Of a DNA stretch of 34,989 nucleotides, positions 1-8,862 are shown in pieces (the stretch's first letter is position 1; the number at the start of each line of letters is the position of its first letter). The translations under genes were made by a program, and so were the position numbers. This stretch comes from a virus, in IMG/VR virus record IMGVR_UViG_3300042309_000652, positions 1-34,989 of that record. One strand, given 5' to 3'. Below the pieces are notes generated by a model. It was not told where the DNA came from and searched no databases. It saw only the letters and a program-made list of their open reading frames with translations.

Positions 1-79
1 CAATGGGCCACCGGAACTACAGGTCATCGTTATCCGCTCTGCCGAGCGTGGCGTGACTCGTAGTTCCGGTGGCCCATTG
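1..79. repeat. Inverted repeat at contig start (likely assembly artefact)
   Basis: Bases 1-20 are the exact reverse complement of bases 60-79, with 39 bases between the arms. The other copy of this sequence, at the right end of the window, lacks the inverted arm and continues into the tail tube gene instead. Bases 1-18 are therefore probably a foldback or assembly error rather than phage sequence. A real terminal hairpin is the alternative, but nothing else supports one. Confidence 0.8.
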
Positions 80-1292: not shown

Positions 1293-2336
1293 TCAGGTGA
1301 GCGCATCCTGCAAGTACAGGCCGGACGCTGGCGCAGTCAGAACCACCGCGCTGTTGTCGGTCACGCTGCCCTTGATGCGCCGATTCCACGGATCATCAAG
1401 AGTCTCAACCGTCATGTCCTCGTAAGCAAACACGGTGGCGGTGCTGAAGGACGGGCCTTCGTTACCGAGCAGGCCGCCGGGACGGCTCACGAACACGATC
1501 TCGGGCGTAGTCGCATCGCCGTAGAAGAAGCCACGCGCCGGGCTGCTGTTGCCCTTACGAGTCGACACACGCACGGTGTCATCGACAACGACTCCACCCA
1601 GACCAAAAAGGTTCTGCGGCAGACCGTAAGCGGCGAAGGTCGCGTCACCCTTCAGGAAGTTCAGCGCGTGAGGAGTGTTCTTGATGTAGTCGCGAACACC
1701 ATCGTTGGTCGCCATGATGCGAGCCGTGATGGGGTTCACGATCATCAGAATGTCCTGCGGGCCAACCGCGCCAACGGTGTTCTGCACGATCTTCTCAATC
1801 GCGGAACGAATGATGCTCTGCACAGAGTCAGTCGAGCCGTTGATAGGATTTGCACCACCAGTCAGGGCAGTAGTGTTCGCAAACACCTGCGTCGAAGGCC
1901 AGCCCGAACCACCGGAGGTGGTCAGCAGTTCCGACATTCGGTACGAGCGGTGCGTCATCATCTTCGCAGCCGCGATGCGAGCGTGGCTAGCCACGACATC
2001 CCATTGCGCCTGACGAGCAGTCTCCTGCGGAATGTGGAACGAAGACTGGAAACGCTGGCAGGTGAACTGCACCCAGTCAATGTCGCTGTTGATGCCCGTG
2101 GGACGATCCTCGCCGAGAGGCCATTGGTAGTCCTGCGTGTTGACCACCCTAGCAGTCTCCTCCTCGTCGATGCGAAGGAAGTAGCCTGCGGCCTGCTGGA
2201 CGGGAACAATCTGCGAGTACTGGGTCAGCGGGAAGCGGTTCACCGCGCGGGTGAACTCAACCTGAATCTGACCCGTCGCAGCCGAGAAGGTGGGGACGAA
2301 GGTATTCAGCCCACCGCCAATTCCGACTTCAGCCAT
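1293..2336 (-). CDS. Major capsid protein
   Basis: 347 aa, typical length for an HK97-fold coat protein. Features include the ARIAAAKMMTHRSYRMSELL helix near residues 120-140, a central stretch on nucleocapsid-like lines (DILMIVNPITARIMATNDGVRDY) and a late beta-rich region (VFVSRPGG...VFAYEDMTVETLDDPWNRRIKGSVTDN), as in coat proteins of phages with DUF935 portals. It follows protease-scaffold and decoration genes in the expected order. AGGAG lies about 10 nt before the ATG, suggesting strong translation. Residues 3-15 (EVGIGGGLNTFVP) nearly repeat residues 181-193 of the protease-scaffold protein, see findings. No large N-terminal delta domain is present. The exact fold subfamily is not proven. 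Confidence 0.85.
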   Translation of the reverse strand: MAEVGIGGGLNTFVPTFSAATGQIQVEFTRAVNRFPLTQYSQIVPVQQAAGYFLRIDEEETARVVNTQDYQWPLGEDRPTGINSDIDWVQFTCQRFQSSFHIPQETARQAQWDVVASHARIAAAKMMTHRSYRMSELLTTSGGSGWPSTQVFANTTALTGGANPINGSTDSVQSIIRSAIEKIVQNTVGAVGPQDILMIVNPITARIMATNDGVRDYIKNTPHALNFLKGDATFAAYGLPQNLFGLGGVVVDDTVRVSTRKGNSSPARGFFYGDATTPEIVFVSRPGGLLGNEGPSFSTATVFAYEDMTVETLDDPWNRRIKGSVTDNSAVVLTAPASGLYLQDALT

Positions 2337-2372
2337 TTGTCATTTCTCCTTGTGTTGGGGTTTGGCTGTGAT

Positions 2373-2810
2373 TTAAAGCGCGGTCGGGTAGTACACCATG
2401 CCGCCGTTACGATAGATGCGGATAATCTGACCCGTTGCGCCAGTCTCAAGAGCCACATAGCCCTGATAACGGAACAAAGGGCCAGCGGTCACGACCGCAG
2501 AAATCGCCTTGCCATCCGAATCGGCCTGAACTCGACCGCCGCGAACGACCGCGCCACCGCACTCGACCAGAACGACATCACCACCCTGAAGGGTGATCGG
2601 ATCGCCTTCAGCGGCGTGAAGGCTGCTGCTGAATGACTTGGTGCTGCCGTCAGCGACACCAACAACATTGTCCGCAGCCGAAGTGACCTGCTCGCCCTTG
2701 TTGTCGCTGATCGTAGCGGGGCTACCAGCGGTGGTTTCCACACGCACAAAGCGGTACGGGTAAACGTCACCCGTCGAGAGAAGTGCCGGAGTGTCAGAGA
2801 AAGATCCCAT
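2373..2810 (-). CDS. Head decoration (capsid cement) protein
   Basis: 145 aa, rich in Gly, Ala, Val and Thr and nearly all beta strand in appearance, with no cysteine cluster or membrane segment. The composition, length and position immediately before the capsid gene are those of DUF2190-like or lambda gpD-like cement proteins that bind the outside of the mature shell. A good ribosome site (AAAGGAAG) precedes the ATG at 2810 within the 18-nt gap after the protease gene. It sits between protease-scaffold and major capsid, the usual place for this protein. A minor virion protein with another role cannot be excluded. Confidence 0.7.
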   Translation of the reverse strand: MGSFSDTPALLSTGDVYPYRFVRVETTAGSPATISDNKGEQVTSAADNVVGVADGSTKSFSSSLHAAEGDPITLQGGDVVLVECGGAVVRGGRVQADSDGKAISAVVTAGPLFRYQGYVALETGATGQIIRIYRNGGMVYYPTAL

Positions 2811-2828
2811 GATCGTGCTTCCTTTCGA

Positions 2829-3551
2829 TTAGGCCTTCTGGCCCGAATACTTGGCGAAAAGCGACTTGAACTTCGTCAGGTCGCCAGCGGCCTCATGCAC
2901 CGCACGAGCGGTAGCGGCCTTGATGTCCATGCTCTCGTGAGCCTCGTCGGTGACGGTGTGCTGCGCCACGGTCGGCACGTTGATGGGATTCTTCGCCATC
3001 GTCGCCTTCCAGAACGCCATCTTCGCGGTGGGGTTGGCCGTGTCGGCCAGTTCCTCAACCATGCTGTTGCGGAACTTGCCGCAGCGGTAGCCGTCGCGGA
3101 TCATCGAATCGACCTCGCGACCAAAACGCTCAAGGCGCAACTGGCGCTCAAGTTCCTGCACACGAGCGAACAGAGCCTTCTCGCTGGTCTTGCCCTTGCT
3201 CATCTTTGCCTTTCCGCCGTAAGCGGCCTCCATCTCCTCGTCCTCCTCCTCCTCCTCCTCCTCGCCGGAGTGGGAGCCAATGTCCACGTGGACACCATCC
3301 TGCATCTCGTCCTTGTCCTCGGCGGCGTAGGCCATCTCGGCCTCGTCCTCGGCAGCCATCGCAGCCGCGTCGGCCATCTCGGCCATCTTGTCCTCGTCCT
3401 CGTCAGCAGCGCACTCGTCTGCCGCAGCAGCCGCGAGAGCCTTCTTGGCCTCCTCGTCGTGCTGCTCCATCTTCTTCTTCATCTTGCTTGGCATGGGCTT
3501 TCTTCCTGTTCCTGACGGGATGAAGGTGTTGAGTCCACCTCCGACCCCCAT
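2829..3551 (-). other. Possible internal start producing free scaffold (240 aa)
   Basis: Met182 of the protease-scaffold protein (codon 3549-3551) opens the sequence MGVGGGLNTFIP. This matches the beginning of the major capsid protein (MAEVGIGGGLNTFVP). Initiation here would give the scaffold alone, as with Mu Z and lambda Nu3, with a capsid-like N terminus. The upstream ribosome site is weak (GGTGAA just before the ATG, AAGG farther away), so this is inference. Met201 is another possible start. Confidence 0.35.
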
Positions 3552-4094
3552 TTCACCGAACTTTGCCTTGGAGTCAATAGAAACGCGCACAACTCCCATA
3601 GGCCGCTCGAAGACCACCTTCGAGCCGTGCTTACCGAATCGCGTGTCGGGCAGCGGCCTGCGCGGCGTATCACGGCCAAGCAGAGCGACTTCCGACAGGT
3701 GATTATCCTTCCAAATCTCTGCGCTGCGACGGGGATAGGCGTTCGTCGCCAGCAGCGAATCGAACGCTTCCTTCGGCATCTCGACATCGCCCACGACGTA
3801 GGCAACGCCGTTGCGCTCCTCGTAGCGGACGCTGGTGATGTCGCCAACCGCCTCGGGCCGCGTGGGCTTGCCGTCCTTCTCGTGTTCGATGACAAGTTTC
3901 GGGCGACTGCCGCGCTGGATGAACTTGCCCGTGCGGGAAACGATGTCCTTCACGCGGGCGTTGTCATAGCCCTGCATGGCCTCGTCCTCGTCCGAGTCGA
4001 TGGACGGATCGAAGCCCATGAACAGTTCAAGGTTGCGGATGCGAACCTTGCCTTCCTCGGTGTTCTCGACGGTGTGGGAGGCTTGCATGGTCAC
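2829..4094 (-). CDS. Prohead protease fused to capsid scaffold
   Basis: 421 aa in two parts. Residues 15-165 form a phage prohead (assemblin-type) serine protease domain. His71 in VIEHEKDG and Ser124 in RRSAEIW are the likely catalytic pair, followed by the family segment LSEVALLG at 133-140. Residues about 200-421 are a scaffold: very charged, Ala- and acid-rich (nine acidic residues in a row after Gly277), then a coiled-coil stretch (KALFARVQELERQLRLERFG) and a C-terminal helical tail likely to bind the coat protein. The join (180-193) copies the coat protein N terminus. Mu I/Z and lambda C/Nu3 have the same protease-then-scaffold plan. The start at 4094 is coupled to the upstream gene by an ATGA overlap. 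Confidence 0.85.
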   Translation of the reverse strand: MTMQASHTVENTEEGKVRIRNLELFMGFDPSIDSDEDEAMQGYDNARVKDIVSRTGKFIQRGSRPKLVIEHEKDGKPTRPEAVGDITSVRYEERNGVAYVVGDVEMPKEAFDSLLATNAYPRRSAEIWKDNHLSEVALLGRDTPRRPLPDTRFGKHGSKVVFERPMGVVRVSIDSKAKFGEMGVGGGLNTFIPSGTGRKPMPSKMKKKMEQHDEEAKKALAAAAADECAADEDEDKMAEMADAAAMAAEDEAEMAYAAEDKDEMQDGVHVDIGSHSGEEEEEEEDEEMEAAYGGKAKMSKGKTSEKALFARVQELERQLRLERFGREVDSMIRDGYRCGKFRNSMVEELADTANPTAKMAFWKATMAKNPINVPTVAQHTVTDEAHESMDIKAATARAVHEAAGDLTKFKSLFAKYSGQKA

Positions 4095-4678
4095 TTGCCA
4101 AAGTAGAAGCGATCCTCGACCTTGAAGGTTGCCTTCGCGCCGGGGCGGGAGAACAAATAGAACGCTTGCATTTGTGCAAACTCGATATTTTTGATCGCAT
4201 CATCGACTTTATTGCTACGAAGCGCGATGATCGCTCTAGCAACATTGGCTGCAATTTTCCCGTCAGTAAGAAATGCTCCCTGCTGTGCAGCCCGCGATGC
4301 TTCAGACAAGATGGATGATGGATTCTTGCCGTCACGAATTGCTGCGAGTGCTTGATTCAATATCTCATTGAACTTCCGCGTTTCCGGTTGCCATCCCATC
4401 GTGTCCTTCTCGCCGGGGCGGGAGTAATTGGCTCGCCGCTCAATCGCAGCAACGCCACGAGCCTCGCGCTTGCCCATGCCTTCAGCCTGACGCTTCAGAT
4501 CAACAACAGATCCGGAGGCAATGCGCTCATATCCCCGAAGATCGTTCCAAAGATACAGAACGCCCTTATCAGAACCTTCGGAAGCCTCAATGCGGAACGC
4601 CTGACCACGAATCTGCGCGTCGTGTTCCTCAATTGGCTTGTTGTATCGCTTGGTTTTGTTCACTTCCCAATTAGCCAT
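4091..4678 (-). CDS. Head-operon protein with SRPG motifs, unknown function
   Basis: 195 aa. I do not recognise the family. It appears to be a mixed helical protein: N-terminal 1-80, then the motif YSRPGEK (85-91), a helical block (100-172), then FSRPGAK (176-182) and a C-terminal EDRFYFGK (188-195). That octapeptide is identical to residues 6-13 of the next-upstream protein, which carries further copies of the SRPG motif. The gene overlaps its upstream neighbour by 8 nt and the protease gene by ATGA, so the products are probably made together. Position between gpF-like and protease genes suggests an inner-head, scaffold-associated or ejected protein. The repeated motif may be a docking or cleavage site (inference). 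Confidence 0.75.
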   Translation of the reverse strand: MANWEVNKTKRYNKPIEEHDAQIRGQAFRIEASEGSDKGVLYLWNDLRGYERIASGSVVDLKRQAEGMGKREARGVAAIERRANYSRPGEKDTMGWQPETRKFNEILNQALAAIRDGKNPSSILSEASRAAQQGAFLTDGKIAANVARAIIALRSNKVDDAIKNIEFAQMQAFYLFSRPGAKATFKVEDRFYFGK

Positions 4679-5834
4679 TCTTCACCTCCACATTCCAATA
4701 GCGTCCGGTGGTAGCCACGGGACTGGTTGCGCTGTAGCCCTTCGACGCGACCCGCCGACCGAAATCGCGGGCAAGGTCTGCGTCCTCAAACGAAATCACG
4801 AGCGTATCGCTGCCGACCTGCACGGCCCGCCATCCGCCGTCCGGCATCGCCTTCGCCGCGAGCAACTTGCCGAGCATGGGCGACTTGCTGGCCTCGGCAA
4901 ACGCGCCGCGCTCAAGGCTGGATGCGTCGAAGGTGTCTGCGTCCTCCTCGGCGTTCTTCATCGGCACACAGTTCGGCACGGTCTTTCCGTCCTTCTGCTT
5001 CGTGCCGACAGGCTCGTAGCCCTCCCAACACGCGCCCTCCATGTCAAACCGCTCGGGCTGGCCGGGGCGGGAATGCGCGTCCACGCGAACGTGCGATATT
5101 GCTCCAGAGGTCAAAACAACATACTTGCCACCCTGATAAATCCGCAGATCTCCCTTGCTATCCACCTTGAACAAGGGCGTGCCCGATGCCTTCCACTTTG
5201 CATAGTTCTTGGGCGTAATGACCGTGCTTTTCATCATGTTGGAGAGATACACCGTTTTCCCGGCTGCAAGTGCTGCTTCGATCTTGTTCAGCACCGTCTG
5301 ACCAATCGATGCCTGCGATGATTCCTCAAACCTCTCGGGCTGGCCGGGGCGGGAGAACCTCCCCCCAAAAATATTGACCTTTTCATAAGCGTTCCTCACA
5401 TTCACACCCAAGTTGAACACCCTCACCATTTCAGCACGCTTTGGGCCATCAAAGTTCTGAAACTCGTCATACAACAGGTTGAGAACATGGTTGAGTTCTC
5501 TTGGTTTGTATGTGTTCTTTATGTCTTTGAGCAACGCCTCGACTTCCTTGTAACCCAAGTCAATTCGTCTTTCGACAATTCGATCATTCGACTCCATTCT
5601 TGTCATTTTTCCGCGCTGCATCAATTCGATTGCAGTCAGAAACGCGCGGCGCGTCGGCTCAATAAAAGCATCCAACCTTCGATTTCCTGTTAGTGGGAAC
5701 AAATTGAGTTGCTTCTTCAACTCATTTAGTGTGCTTTTGTATTCCGCAGGGTGCATTCGCATTTCTGAATCTGAAAACCGCTCGGGGTGGCCGGGCTTGC
5801 CGAAGTAGAACCGATCTTCTGTCTTGTTGGTCAT
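4671..5834 (-). CDS. Modular head-operon protein with three (S/K)PG(x)PERF motifs
   Basis: 387 aa built of distinct blocks joined by a repeated motif: RFYFGKPGHPERF (8-20), a helical block (25-155), RFSRPGQPERF (159-169), a mixed block (172-250), HSRPGQPERF (254-263), a short CWEGYEPVGTKQKDGKTVPNCVP element (269-291) and a C-terminal alpha/beta block (302-387). The CWEGYE...VPNC element resembles a small module I recall in other phage head proteins. The second and third motifs share 21 identical nucleotides, indicating recent duplication. Coupled by ATGA to the gpF-like gene upstream. No enzyme signature is visible. Candidate roles are an internal head protein or a precursor cut by the prohead protease; both are inference. 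Confidence 0.75.
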   Translation of the reverse strand: MTNKTEDRFYFGKPGHPERFSDSEMRMHPAEYKSTLNELKKQLNLFPLTGNRRLDAFIEPTRRAFLTAIELMQRGKMTRMESNDRIVERRIDLGYKEVEALLKDIKNTYKPRELNHVLNLLYDEFQNFDGPKRAEMVRVFNLGVNVRNAYEKVNIFGGRFSRPGQPERFEESSQASIGQTVLNKIEAALAAGKTVYLSNMMKSTVITPKNYAKWKASGTPLFKVDSKGDLRIYQGGKYVVLTSGAISHVRVDAHSRPGQPERFDMEGACWEGYEPVGTKQKDGKTVPNCVPMKNAEEDADTFDASSLERGAFAEASKSPMLGKLLAAKAMPDGGWRAVQVGSDTLVISFEDADLARDFGRRVASKGYSATSPVATTGRYWNVEVKNG

Positions 5835-6889
5835 CGTTTGAATCCGGGGTCGGGGTACTCGCCTCTGTCGATGATGCGTTGCCGTGCTGCGTTATATCGC
5901 GCAAGTGCCTTCCGATCTAGCGTTTCGTCCTCGCGCACGAAACCCATCTCGCGGGCCTCGTCAAAGGTCACGGGCGTTAGCGCACCTCGGCAGTTGAAGC
6001 CGTTGGGAGGCACAAGCCCCTGCCGCTTGAAGTCCGCAGCCGTGGCGATATAGCCGTCCATCTGCCAATGGCTACCGGGGTTGCGGCTCTGCCCTCTGCG
6101 CCGGTAAACGCCACCCGGCGCACCGCGCGTCCTGCTGTCGTGGATCTCGACCAATCGTAGCAGGGGTGCCCACCGGGCCACGGCTGGCTTGTCCATTACC
6201 TCGGCGGTGGCCTCGTTGTACGCGGAAGCGGTGTTCGTGCGGTAGACCGTTTCCATCCGCGCCGTGGTCATCCCGATGATGCCCTCGACCTGCGCCCGCC
6301 GGATGAAGCCCGACAGCCCGCCCGTCTTTAGTCCCGCCGGGATCGCGCTGGTTTCGATGCTGCGAGCGATCAAATCTTGTATGCGTTGTGCTTGTTGCCA
6401 TGTTGCACCTTTGATCCGAAAGGCTTTTGACACAACATCTCGCAAACCATCCAAACGCTTTGTCATCTCGCGCAACGCATTCTTGTTTTCGGTCACGGCA
6501 ATGCGATTTGCAAGGCTTTGTGATTCTGCCCGTATTCGCTGCACCTCGCTCCACGAAATTGGAACTCGCCTTCGGAAGGCTCGCAAGGCTTCCCAGAACA
6601 CTCCCGGCTCAAAGCCGACCTCAACCGTAAGTTCCGCGAACGTGTCCGGCTTCTCGTCCGGCCACTCCTGCGGCTCCCATTCGTTCCCTTGCTGCTTCGT
6701 CGCCGCGTAGGCGCGAGCCTGTCCCGCAAGTTTCGTCAGCGTAAGCACTTGGCCCAACGCCTCGCCGTATCGCTCCCACGCCTCTGCAGCGTCCTCCGGC
6801 TCCTCGCGCACCTGCGCTGCGAGAGCGGCGCGATACCACCGCGCTACTTCGCGCAGCCCGCGCTTGTAGATGCGGTCGAACTCGGTCAC
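5831..6889 (-). CDS. Head morphogenesis protein (Mu gpF-like minor head protein)
   Basis: 352 aa. The C-terminal third has the Mu F signature: HDSRTRGAPGGV, then HWQMDGYIAT, then VPPNGFNCRGALTPV (about residues 245-310), matching the usual D.RTR ... H..(L/M)DG ... PPNG.NCRC pattern. The preceding region is long and helical (IEGIIGMTTARMETVYRTNTASAYNEA), as in the family. These minor head proteins associate with the portal during prohead assembly. ATGA overlaps at both ends couple it to portal (upstream) and the SRPG-motif protein (downstream). Usual Mu F has CRC in the last motif; here it is CRG, so one possible metal-binding cysteine is missing. Confidence 0.85.
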   Translation of the reverse strand: MTEFDRIYKRGLREVARWYRAALAAQVREEPEDAAEAWERYGEALGQVLTLTKLAGQARAYAATKQQGNEWEPQEWPDEKPDTFAELTVEVGFEPGVFWEALRAFRRRVPISWSEVQRIRAESQSLANRIAVTENKNALREMTKRLDGLRDVVSKAFRIKGATWQQAQRIQDLIARSIETSAIPAGLKTGGLSGFIRRAQVEGIIGMTTARMETVYRTNTASAYNEATAEVMDKPAVARWAPLLRLVEIHDSRTRGAPGGVYRRRGQSRNPGSHWQMDGYIATAADFKRQGLVPPNGFNCRGALTPVTFDEAREMGFVREDETLDRKALARYNAARQRIIDRGEYPDPGFKR

Positions 6890-8862
6890 TTGCGGCGGCG
6901 GGCCTTGGGCTTGGCAGCCTTGGCCTTACGGCCACGCTTTGCGGCTACGCGCTTGCGTCCGGGCTTGGAGTGCAGTTCCCCGCGCCGCTTCATCGACAGC
7001 GCGATAGCCACGGCTTGATCCTGCGGGTAGCCCTCGTCGCGCAACAGCGCGATCTTGCGGCTTACCGCATCGTCCTTCGCGGCCTGCGTGTCCTTGCCTT
7101 CGGCCTTGTCGAGTTCCTTGTCCTTGCGCTTGGCCCATGCCCTGCCGGGATCGCCGCCCCACAGCAGCCACGCGATGTAGCCCGCTGAATCCTCGCCCCA
7201 GCCCTCGCCCTGCTTGTCCACCTCGTGACGGGCGAAGTACGAGTTCATGCGTCGCACCGTGGACGGCGAGAGCGTCTTGCGGTTCGACAGGTCACGCGCC
7301 CGAGCCACGCCGACTTCCGTGCCGCCGCGCCCGTGCTTCTTCCGCAGTTCCAGCCCGCGCTTCGCGGCGTTCGCCATCTCCTCGGTCGGGGTCAAATCGA
7401 CGTCCGACAGAGCGAACTTGTCCTTGGCGAACGGGGTAGGCTCCTCCGCCTCCTGCTCGCCTGCCATCGGCCCAATGTCGAGTCCACCGATGCCGCCCAT
7501 GCCTCCCTCGGCAGGGGCCTGCAACACAGCCTCGTCATCCTCCGGCTCGGCCAGACCAAGCACCTTCCGAGCCTCGCGCTCGCTGACGCGGCCACCCAAC
7601 TTCGTGAAGGCTTCAATGGCCTTCATGTATTCATCCGGGTTCGGCTTGCTCACGCTGAAGGAGAACTGCGGCGGGGTTCCATCGTCGCCGAAGTTGAACC
7701 GATAGAGCGGCGTGACGATTTCGCGCGTGATGGTTTCACCGAGCGCGTTGGCGATGTAGGTCAACTGGCGGTTTAGCGTCTGCGCGTGCTGGTCGCCAAT
7801 GGAACTGCCTAGCCCGCTAGTCACGGCCTGCGAAGTGCCCGTCTGGCCAAGGATGACTTCCTTGATGTTCTCGGTCAGATACTCGACCATCTTCGCGAAC
7901 GCTTCGGCGTTGCCGCCGTTGGGCTCAAGAATCTTGATGTCGTAGCCCGCATCCGTGCCGTCGCCGTTCTTCGGGATCAGCACCGAGACATCGCCGAGCA
8001 AGTTCTGCATGGCCGTTTCCATGTCGGCCTTCGCGGCGTCGTTGCCCACCGGGTAGTTGCCCACTCGGATGCCCATGCTGTATCGCTCAATGTAGGTCGC
8101 CCAATTCTGTAGCGCGGCCTGCTTGAGCGACCAGTAGTACCACACGAGGTCGCGCATACCTCGACCGAGATAGGCATTCTCGGCCTCGTATGGATCGTCG
8201 AAATCCACGCCCTGCGGCTGGTAGGTGTGGAGCGCGATCGTGCTGCGCTGCTCGTCATCGAGCGGCAGGACGCGGCTATCCCAGCCGATCACCGTGCCAT
8301 TGATCTTGTCCGTGTCCGGGGCTGCGCCTCCGATGGTCTGCGTGTAGTAGCGCGGGCCGACTTTCAGGCCGAGTTGCCCGAGTTCGGTCATGGTCAGGCT
8401 GTCACCGTGGATCGGCAGCCAGTCGCGCAGGTACACGGTTTCGCCGTGCTTGCCGAACACCATGTTCACCGCGCTGCGCCCGTACCAGAGCGCATCCAGC
8501 AAGTGCCGCATAAGGTCGGTGAAGCGCGGCGTGTTCTTCAGGAGTTTGTTGATGAACGCGGCCTGCTCGGTCGCGTCCTCGTCGCCCTGCATATCGGCGG
8601 GGGATTGCACCGCCCACTCCGAGCAAGCGACCGAGAGTTGCAGCATGAGCAGCGGCCCCATGATGTCTGGGTCGTAGCGCATCTGCCGCTGTAGGTTCCG
8701 ATCCTTGCGGAACGCCAGCGAGCCTTGGCGAAGGATCTTGTTGACCGAGAGGTAATACGAACGCTGCATCTCGACAGGCGTGACAAGTGCCTGAAAGACG
8801 GGCGCGGCTCGCACCATGTCTGCTGCTTGGGTCTGGTTCGCTTCGCTGTTGAGTTCGTTCAT
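6886..8862 (-). CDS. Portal protein (DUF935, Mu gp29-like) with fused C-terminal modules
   Basis: 658 aa. Residues about 25-445 are the DUF935 portal core: RYDPDIMGPLLMLQLSVACSEW, LLDALWYGRSAVNMVF, then VILGQTGTSQAVTSGLGSSIGDQH. The portal forms the dodecameric vertex ring for DNA passage. The tail is unusual. After an acidic linker there is a module at 492-583 (GRGGTEVGVARARDLSN ... RMNSYFARHEVDKQGEGW ... AGYIAWLLWGGDPGRAWA), a second at 600-630 (KIALLRDEGYPQDQAVAIALSM) and a Lys/Arg-rich end (632-658). I recall these modules in other phage head proteins, often fused to different partners. Starts 3 nt after the terminase gene. The basic tail could contact DNA or the acidic scaffold (inference). 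Confidence 0.85.
   Translation of the reverse strand: MNELNSEANQTQAADMVRAAPVFQALVTPVEMQRSYYLSVNKILRQGSLAFRKDRNLQRQMRYDPDIMGPLLMLQLSVACSEWAVQSPADMQGDEDATEQAAFINKLLKNTPRFTDLMRHLLDALWYGRSAVNMVFGKHGETVYLRDWLPIHGDSLTMTELGQLGLKVGPRYYTQTIGGAAPDTDKINGTVIGWDSRVLPLDDEQRSTIALHTYQPQGVDFDDPYEAENAYLGRGMRDLVWYYWSLKQAALQNWATYIERYSMGIRVGNYPVGNDAAKADMETAMQNLLGDVSVLIPKNGDGTDAGYDIKILEPNGGNAEAFAKMVEYLTENIKEVILGQTGTSQAVTSGLGSSIGDQHAQTLNRQLTYIANALGETITREIVTPLYRFNFGDDGTPPQFSFSVSKPNPDEYMKAIEAFTKLGGRVSEREARKVLGLAEPEDDEAVLQAPAEGGMGGIGGLDIGPMAGEQEAEEPTPFAKDKFALSDVDLTPTEEMANAAKRGLELRKKHGRGGTEVGVARARDLSNRKTLSPSTVRRMNSYFARHEVDKQGEGWGEDSAGYIAWLLWGGDPGRAWAKRKDKELDKAEGKDTQAAKDDAVSRKIALLRDEGYPQDQAVAIALSMKRRGELHSKPGRKRVAAKRGRKAKAAKPKARRRK

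What the first reader, a model, noticed from the sequence alone, without database searches (positions are those of the whole stretch)
1293..4094. Scaffold and capsid protein share a 13-residue peptide; possible internal scaffold start
Residues 181-193 of the protease-scaffold protein (EMGVGGGLNTFIP) and 3-15 of the major capsid protein (EVGIGGGLNTFVP) agree at 10 of 13 positions, with the three differences all conservative. In the scaffold gene this peptide sits exactly at the join between protease and scaffold domains, and Met182 could be an internal start, so free scaffold would have a capsid-like N terminus. A shared peptide at the start of both scaffold and coat suggests a common docking site (for example on the portal or inner shell), a shared prohead protease substrate, or duplication of a targeting peptide. 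Internal scaffold starts are known (Mu Z, lambda Nu3); a shared N-terminal tag is not something I know to be described.
Basis: partly seen in the sequence, partly recalled or inferred. Interest (0 to 1): 0.75.

Follow-up and report, generated by a model that had tools for sequence, protein, structure and literature searches.

The report
Capsid-protease scaffold shares coat-protein peptide
In a family of uncultured phages the coat protein's first residues recur in the protease-scaffold protein, just before a conserved internal start of the free scaffold, which suggests that one short signal, perhaps a cutting site, is used twice when the virus head is built.

Summary
The 13-residue peptide is shared (best 13-mer score 64 against at most 44 in 1000 shuffles). 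Of 296 related loci holding both genes it is found in both in 292; the other four genes are frameshifted or cut off. Its core, roughly G-G-x-(x)-[NS]-x-[FY]-[VI]-P, survives in six peptide types, down to about 32% protease-scaffold identity, with varied codons, so selection acts on the protein.

An ATG 5-11 codons after the peptide (window 3494) is present in 160 of 160 distinct genes, with a Shine-Dalgarno-like motif in 154. Free scaffold would therefore begin after the peptide; only the long protease-scaffold form carries it. The protease domain resembles T4 gp21 and herpesvirus assemblin (moderate scores). The layout matches UL26/UL26.5, where the self-cleavage site lies just upstream of the internal start.

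Best reading: one recognition motif used twice, most likely the protease's own processing site (release from scaffold, trimming of coat N terminus). Main rival: coat-arm mimicry that docks the protease to the shell. Nothing here separates the two. Phage 80alpha already shows a peptide shared by coat and scaffold, but motif and partners differ.

The parts
1293..2336 (-). major capsid protein, HK97 fold, 347 aa
   Evidence: phrog_1005 'major head protein' E 3.3e-4; 17 of 26 family members match it at E up to 1; AlphaFold model aligns to HK97-fold capsids, best VIA Z 14.2
2292..2330 (-). shared peptide in coat, residues 3-15 EVGIGGGLNTFVP, at the extreme N terminus
   Evidence: kept in relatives
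2373..2810 (-). small cement/decoration-like protein lying between the two genes; no such peptide seen in it
   Evidence: Pfam Phage_cement below its cut-off (E 7.9e-4); phrog_673 (labelled 'head scaffolding protein') E 2.6e-12
2829..4094 (-). protease-scaffold protein (long form), 421 aa from GTG; the ATG at 4088 is the likelier start
   Evidence: ORF; start alignment in relatives
3627..4079 (-). protease domain, about residues 6-156, with invariant His71 and Ser124 (candidate catalytic residues)
   Evidence: VIA-align: T4 gp21 5jbl Z 7.3, then varicella-zoster, pseudorabies and other herpes proteases; invariant columns
3516..3554 (-). shared peptide in the protease-scaffold linker, residues 181-193 EMGVGGGLNTFIP
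   Evidence: low-confidence region in the model, pLDDT under 50 at 137-209; G186 and N189 invariant, F191 and P193 at least 90% in 21 rows
3504..3507 (-). Shine-Dalgarno-like AGGA in front of the internal start
   Evidence: SD-like motif in 154 of 160 distinct relatives
2829..3494 (-). free scaffold (short form), predicted from internal ATG 3492-3494 (Met201), 221 aa, without the peptide
   Evidence: Met201 invariant in 21 rows; ATG 5-11 codons after the peptide in 160 of 160 distinct genes

Best explanation
The gene makes two in-frame products, as herpes UL26/UL26.5 and Mu I/Z do: a long protease-scaffold and, from an internal start just after the peptide, a free scaffold. The shared peptide is one short linear recognition motif used in two proteins. 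Most likely it is the protease's own processing site. Cut in cis, in the linker, it separates protease from scaffold and leaves a scaffold almost the same as the internally initiated one. Cut in trans at the coat N terminus, it trims the coat protein during maturation. Shown by sequence: the motif, its constraint in both proteins, its position and the conserved internal start; by a medium-confidence model, an assemblin/gp21-like protease fold. Inferred: that both products are made, that the protease is active, and that it cuts within the motif.
For: Both copies kept in 292 of 296 loci. First glycine invariant in 76 of 76 distinct pairs, final P in 76 of 76 coats and 75 of 76 scaffolds, N/S state equal in 72 of 76. 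Codons vary. Position at the end of an assemblin/gp21-like domain, with an internal start 5-11 codons later. This is the layout of pseudorabies UL26, where the R-site product is 21 residues longer than UL26.5 (PMC4498786, passages). T4 gp21, the best fold match, cuts itself, degrades core proteins and removes a 65-residue N-terminal piece (PMC9958956, passages; that the piece is from coat gp23 is recalled). No third protein with a convincing copy was found.
Against: No cleavage data were found for any member, and no cultured relative by tblastn. The scissile bond cannot be named: P1 residues recalled for this fold (Ala, Glu, Lys) are not conserved in the motif. The part [NS]x[FY][VI]P would lie on the prime side of a cut after glycine. 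The scaffold domain after Met201 gave no second hit to the motif that I saw. Similarity spans about 13 residues, long for a protease site. Coat spacing is fixed: 6 residues from the nearest upstream ATG to the first motif glycine in 281 of 292 loci, 11 in 8, 7 in 2 and 5 in 1, which fits a docking end at least as well as a disposable propeptide.
Confidence: 0.47

Rival explanations
1. Coat-arm mimicry: the coat N-terminal arm docks in a groove of the shell, and the protease-scaffold carries a copy of that arm so that the protease is anchored to the inner shell at the same site. The arm replaces the mimic after the scaffold leaves.
For: The coat copy is at the very N terminus with near-fixed spacing (6 residues in 281 of 292 loci) and runs on into a strongly conserved N-arm. 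A Gly-rich stretch followed by a short hydrophobic end looks like a docking peptide (encapsulin cargo peptides, recalled). The final proline and the F/Y-V/I pair are conserved.
Against: Why only the long form should carry it is explained only if it targets the protease. The MCP model is unreliable in residues 1-113, so no groove can be pointed to. No solved relative was found by sequence.
Confidence: 0.31
2. Both peptides bind a third party: a portal, a chaperone or a host protease, as considered for the shared coat/scaffold N-terminal peptide of phage 80alpha.
For: Published precedent in which coat and scaffold share an N-terminal peptide that is essential in scaffold although its cleavage is not (PMC5744158, passages).
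Against: The 80alpha motif is cut between F and A; here F/Y is followed by V or I in 76 of 76 distinct pairs in both proteins. The two relatives in cellular bins are labelled actinobacterium and Nitrospiraceae, so one host enzyme is less likely.
Confidence: 0.15
3. Chance, low-complexity resemblance or a duplication without function.
For: Gly-rich stretches match easily; own-pair similarity exceeds within-clade shuffles only weakly (157 of 5000 shuffles reach it). A loose form of the pattern also hits GSGASSYIPT-type stretches in tail/lectin-like proteins (19 hits).
Against: 0 of 1000 shuffles reach the score; presence in both proteins across six peptide types; varied codons; two phages with a similar gene order, Mu and HW12, show no such match.
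Confidence: 0.02

Closest known systems
Herpesvirus UL26/UL26.5 (assemblin with nested scaffold)
   Same: Protease fused to scaffold, free scaffold from an in-frame overlapping gene, the candidate site in the linker just upstream of that start; protease fold resemblance.
   Different: The second herpes target (M-site) is near the scaffold C terminus; here the second copy is at the coat N terminus. The pseudorabies sites quoted (Q-A-T, Q-A-S) have no counterpart in the motif. Cleavage is not shown here.
Phage Mu gene I/Z and the Casadabanvirus HW12 protease
   Same: Protease gene shortly upstream of the coat gene; in Mu an annotated internal start for Z.
   Different: Neither shares a peptide with its coat protein (best 13-mer 25 and 24, within shuffles). 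An internal start in HW12 was not checked.
Phage 80alpha coat and scaffold N-terminal Prp sites
   Same: A short peptide shared by coat and scaffold proteins.
   Different: In 80alpha both copies are N-terminal, cut F|A by a host protease and shared with ribosomal L27 (PMC5744158, passages). Here one copy is internal, between protease and scaffold, and F is followed by V or I.
T4 gp21 prohead protease and capsid-targeting sequence
   Same: Closest solved fold to the protease model (Z 7.3); a short sequence conserved among internal proteins IPII and IPIII; an N-terminal piece is removed by gp21 (PMC9958956, passages).
   Different: T4 has several core substrates; here no convincing third protein with the motif was found.

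Membership tests
Assemblin/gp21-fold prohead protease | Herpes assemblin/gp21 fold | tested here: met
   VIA-align of a medium-confidence model (mean pLDDT 58.7): gp21 Z 7.3, rmsd 3.4, 116 aligned; the next ten rows are all herpes proteases (Z 4.5-5.7); unrelated folds appear from Z 4.4 down, mixed with more herpes rows. Z under 8, so moderate; Foldseek alone was not significant
Assemblin/gp21-fold prohead protease | Conserved catalytic Ser and His | tested here: inconclusive
   His71 and Ser124 invariant in 21 sequences; not superposed on a solved active site
Nested protease/scaffold gene (UL26/UL26.5, Mu I/Z) | Internal in-frame start giving free scaffold | tested here: met
   By sequence only: ATG 5-11 codons after the peptide in 160 of 160 (counting the first ATG at least 3 codons on), SD-like motif in 154 of 160 against 606 of 2099 other in-frame ATGs; expression untested
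Nested protease/scaffold gene (UL26/UL26.5) | Self-cleavage at a release site between protease and scaffold | not testable with these tools
   Needs proteomics or purified enzyme
80alpha-type Prp site | F|A cleavage motif shared with ribosomal L27 | tested here: not met
   The residue after F/Y is V or I in 76 of 76 distinct pairs in both proteins (the search pattern allowed V, I or L there)
T4-type capsid-targeting sequence | Same short sequence on several internal head proteins | tested here: not met
   In 131 loci, hits outside coat and scaffold were 2, both the frameshifted scaffold of one contig. With a looser pattern in 314 loci there were 21: those 2 and 19 GSGASSYIPT-type hits in ORFs of which the three tested match a PHROG tail protein, two of them also weakly or clearly Pfam CBM/lectin domains
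Encapsulin-like cargo-loading peptide | Peptide bound in a groove of the HK97-fold shell | not testable with these tools
   No complex could be run and no relative structure was found; coat N-arm model unreliable

The most novel reading that the evidence does not exclude
The protease-scaffold carries a molecular copy of the coat protein's own N-terminal arm and uses it as a place-holder. The long-form molecules occupy coat-arm sites in the prohead, which anchors the protease at the shell, and are displaced by the real arms (or cut off) at maturation. This would be a hand-over switch built from one duplicated peptide.
Probability: 0.28. Interest if true: 0.75.

Novelty: new variant of a known kind. 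Interest (0 to 1): 0.52.

Why it matters
How prohead proteases find their substrates, and how they are held inside the shell in the right number, is worked out for few phages (general knowledge, not from a call). Here one short motif, kept in two partners through six peptide types, gives a testable handle: a single peptide that should either be cut or bound, and whose loss from one partner only should separate the two functions. It also suggests that the herpes-type nested protease/scaffold design occurs in a sizeable uncultured phage family (330 IMG/VR hits).

Tried and rejected
Met182 as internal start: rejected (Met in 2 of 25 rows; the conserved ATG is Met201). Recent duplication or gene conversion: disfavoured (4 of 10 identical codons; varied codons across relatives). 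Strict co-variation of the two peptides: only weak. Own pairs score 47.3 against 39.6 for free shuffles (0 of 5000) but 46.9 for within-clade shuffles (157 of 5000). So most of the agreement is clade-level, and discordant cases exist: coat LSTF with scaffold NVF in part of type III, coat NNAF with scaffold LNTF, coat LSTF with scaffold LSTY (L211). The six types were assigned by peptide patterns in a script, not by a tree; no tree was built.

A third protein with the motif: none convincing. One search (131 loci) gave 2 outside hits, both a frameshifted scaffold. A looser pattern over all 314 loci gave 19 more, of the form GSGASSYIPT or close to it. The three ORFs tested match a PHROG tail protein (E 1e-41 or better) and two match Pfam carbohydrate-binding or lectin models, one below cut-off. 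I take these as a different motif, but it is a judgement. Cultured relatives: none by tblastn of three coat proteins (window, L035, L102) and of the window's scaffold. Solved relatives by sequence: none for the coat; five low-complexity matches for the protease-scaffold profile, best E 0.76. Foldseek on the protease model gave no match at E up to 0.001; the VIA second look ranked gp21 and herpes proteases first. PHROG scans of the protease-scaffold members gave only scattered weak hits, a few named head maturation protease. The MCP model is poor in residues 1-113, so the N-arm could not be placed. Phage Pa193 was considered because its vertex structure contains a putative scaffold; its helix-turn-helix binds the A-domain, a different contact (passages). 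Literature searches. Besides 80alpha I saw no shared coat/scaffold peptide in those listings (titles and abstract starts, top rows only); two searches returned nothing, and most subscription journals are not held.

Limits of the counts: the 314 loci include the window and its copy L090. They come from scans that kept all 46 and 46 loci, 2, or the best 80 of 118 to 331 hits. Several loci are the same contig, and sequences are related, so p-values overstate independence. 18 of the 314 lacked a coat gene in the stretch.

Full report
WHAT IS THERE. The window is a virus record of 34,989 bases. On the minus strand lie, in order of transcription, a Mu-type portal (6886-8862; Pfam Portal_Mu), a Mu-F-like minor head protein (5831-6889), two ORFs without a Pfam match (4671-5834, 4091-4678), the protease-scaffold gene (2829-4094), a small cement-like gene (2373-2810) and the major capsid gene (1293-2336). 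Scaffold residues 181-193 and coat residues 3-15 share 10 of 13 residues. The score (64) is far above 1000 shuffles (maximum 44; extrapolated p about 9e-8). Only 4 of 10 identical residues share a codon.

CONSERVATION. Seven scans gave loci from IMG/VR contigs and two MAG contigs. In one search, 314 loci including the window have the protease-scaffold and 296 have both genes. The motif is in both proteins in 292 (188 distinct pairs by the last 120 residues). The four misses are incomplete genes: L033 and L088 are the same contig with a frameshift, the peptide being in the next ORF; L100 and L120 are truncated. The pairs fall into six peptide types, for example GGGLNTF in both, SPGGSNTF (scaffold) with APGGGNTF (coat), SPGSANTY with APGQANTY, APGVGNVF with NIGGGLNTF, and GGGLSTF/Y with GGGLSTY. 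Among 76 distinct pairs the first glycine is invariant in both proteins, the final proline in 76 coats and 75 scaffolds, and the N/S state agrees in 72; the F/Y state agrees in only 50 and the V/I state in 47. Codons for the same residues vary. In the 21-row alignment A3, in which the more distant rows have 32-44% identity to the window protein, G186 and N189 are invariant and F191 and P193 at least 90%. Positions 166-178 and 194-200 on either side are more variable, except Phe179 at the edge. Agreement inside a genome exceeds free shuffling strongly but within-clade shuffling only weakly.

THE INTERNAL START. The first ATG at least three codons after the peptide (the counting rule) lies 5-11 codons on in 160 of 160 distinct genes, with an SD-like motif in 154 of 160 against 606 of 2099 other in-frame ATGs. 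The mean predicted pairing energy with the anti-SD is -6.8 against -3.0 kcal/mol. Six genes lack a recognisable motif. Met201 is invariant in A3. In the window this is ATG 3494-3492 with AGGA at 3507-3504. The window's version (the sequence listed for L001) is among the weakest of the 52, at -4.3 kcal/mol. If used, it gives a 221-residue scaffold without the peptide, and the peptide belongs to the long form only.

FOLDS. The protease-scaffold model (mean pLDDT 58.7) places the peptide in a low-confidence linker. Its residues 6-156 align best to T4 gp21 (Z 7.3, rmsd 3.4, 116 residues), then to varicella-zoster, pseudorabies, cytomegalovirus, HSV-2 and KSHV proteases (Z 4.5-5.7). Unrelated folds appear from Z 4.4 down, mixed with further herpes rows. 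Foldseek alone was not significant, so the fold assignment is moderate. His71 and Ser124 are invariant candidates for catalysis. The coat is an HK97-fold protein (best Z 14.2), but its residues 1-113 are poorly modelled.

HOW IT MAY WORK. The layout reproduces UL26/UL26.5: a protease, then a linker site, then the start of free scaffold. In pseudorabies virus the R-site product is 21 residues longer than UL26.5 (PMC4498786, passages); here the internal start is 5-11 codons beyond the peptide. A cut there would make the two scaffold products nearly equal and free the protease. A second copy at the coat N terminus would then be its trans substrate, as T4 gp21 cuts itself, core proteins and a 65-residue N-terminal piece (coat gp23 recalled). 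This is my first choice (0.47). The rival is that the linker copy imitates the coat arm and docks the protease at the shell (0.31). The [NS]x[FY][VI]P core, the near-fixed N-terminal position in the coat (6 residues from ATG in 281 of 292 loci) and the 13-residue span fit docking somewhat better, while position and parallels fit processing better. A third-party partner, as considered for 80alpha, remains possible (0.15).

KNOWN OR NEW. Protease-scaffold genes with nested scaffold are known (Mu I/Z annotated; herpes). A peptide shared by coat and scaffold is known in 80alpha. What I did not find in the searches listed under Tried and rejected is a motif shared by the coat N terminus and the protease/scaffold linker of the same phage. 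Mu and HW12 do not show one. Hence: a new variant of a known kind.

Noticed in passing
window 4091-4678 and 4671-5834 (minus) and equivalent ORFs in 130 loci: ORFs between the Mu-F-like gene and the protease gene carry repeated SRPG-type peptides (SRPGQPERF, SRPGAKAxF). The SRPG codons are strongly fixed at DNA level: TCCCGCCCCGGC in 145 of 187 distinct contexts (0.78) against 0.024 expected from coat and scaffold codon usage, with varied segments between. It may be a module-shuffling junction or a DNA site. Present upstream of the protease in 70 of 84 type I, 35 of 81 type V and 10 of 78 type VI loci; 1 of 12 type II (an unlike match), 0 of 33 type III, 0 of 4 type IV.
   Followed up: partly
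window C terminus of 4091-4678 and N terminus of 4671-5834: A second shared peptide, KVEDRFYFGK / KTEDRFYFGK (9 of 10 identical, E 2.9e-4), at the end of one protein and the start of its neighbour.
   Followed up: no
window 4671-5834, residues about 267-322: Module CWEGYEPVGTKQKDGKTVPNCVP lies in a stretch that matches several PHROGs of unknown function (best phrog_9737, E 5.4e-10).
   Followed up: no
window 2373-2810: Cement-like protein also matches phrog_673, labelled 'head scaffolding protein' (E 2.6e-12); one of the two labels is probably misleading.
   Followed up: no
window 1-20 and 60-79: Exact 20-base inverted repeat (CAATGGGCCACCGGAACTAC) at the very end of the record, read directly; possibly an assembly end or terminator-like structure.
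   Followed up: no
L129 (actinobacterium MAG contig, 45.7 kb) and L130 (Nitrospiraceae MAG contig, 6.5 kb): The only relatives found in cellular genome bins; possible but unproven host hints.
   Followed up: no
L033 / L088 (same IMG/VR contig): Protease-scaffold gene frameshifted between protease and linker; the peptide continues in another ORF. May be a sequencing error or a real break.
   Followed up: no
L244 about 2786-4372, L279 about 2861-4378, L156 about 2182-3531, and similar: Tail/lectin-like ORFs (phrog_5939) sit shortly upstream of the protease gene in some relatives, an odd place for a tail-type protein, and carry GAQxExGSGASSYIPT, which loosely resembles the motif.
   Followed up: partly
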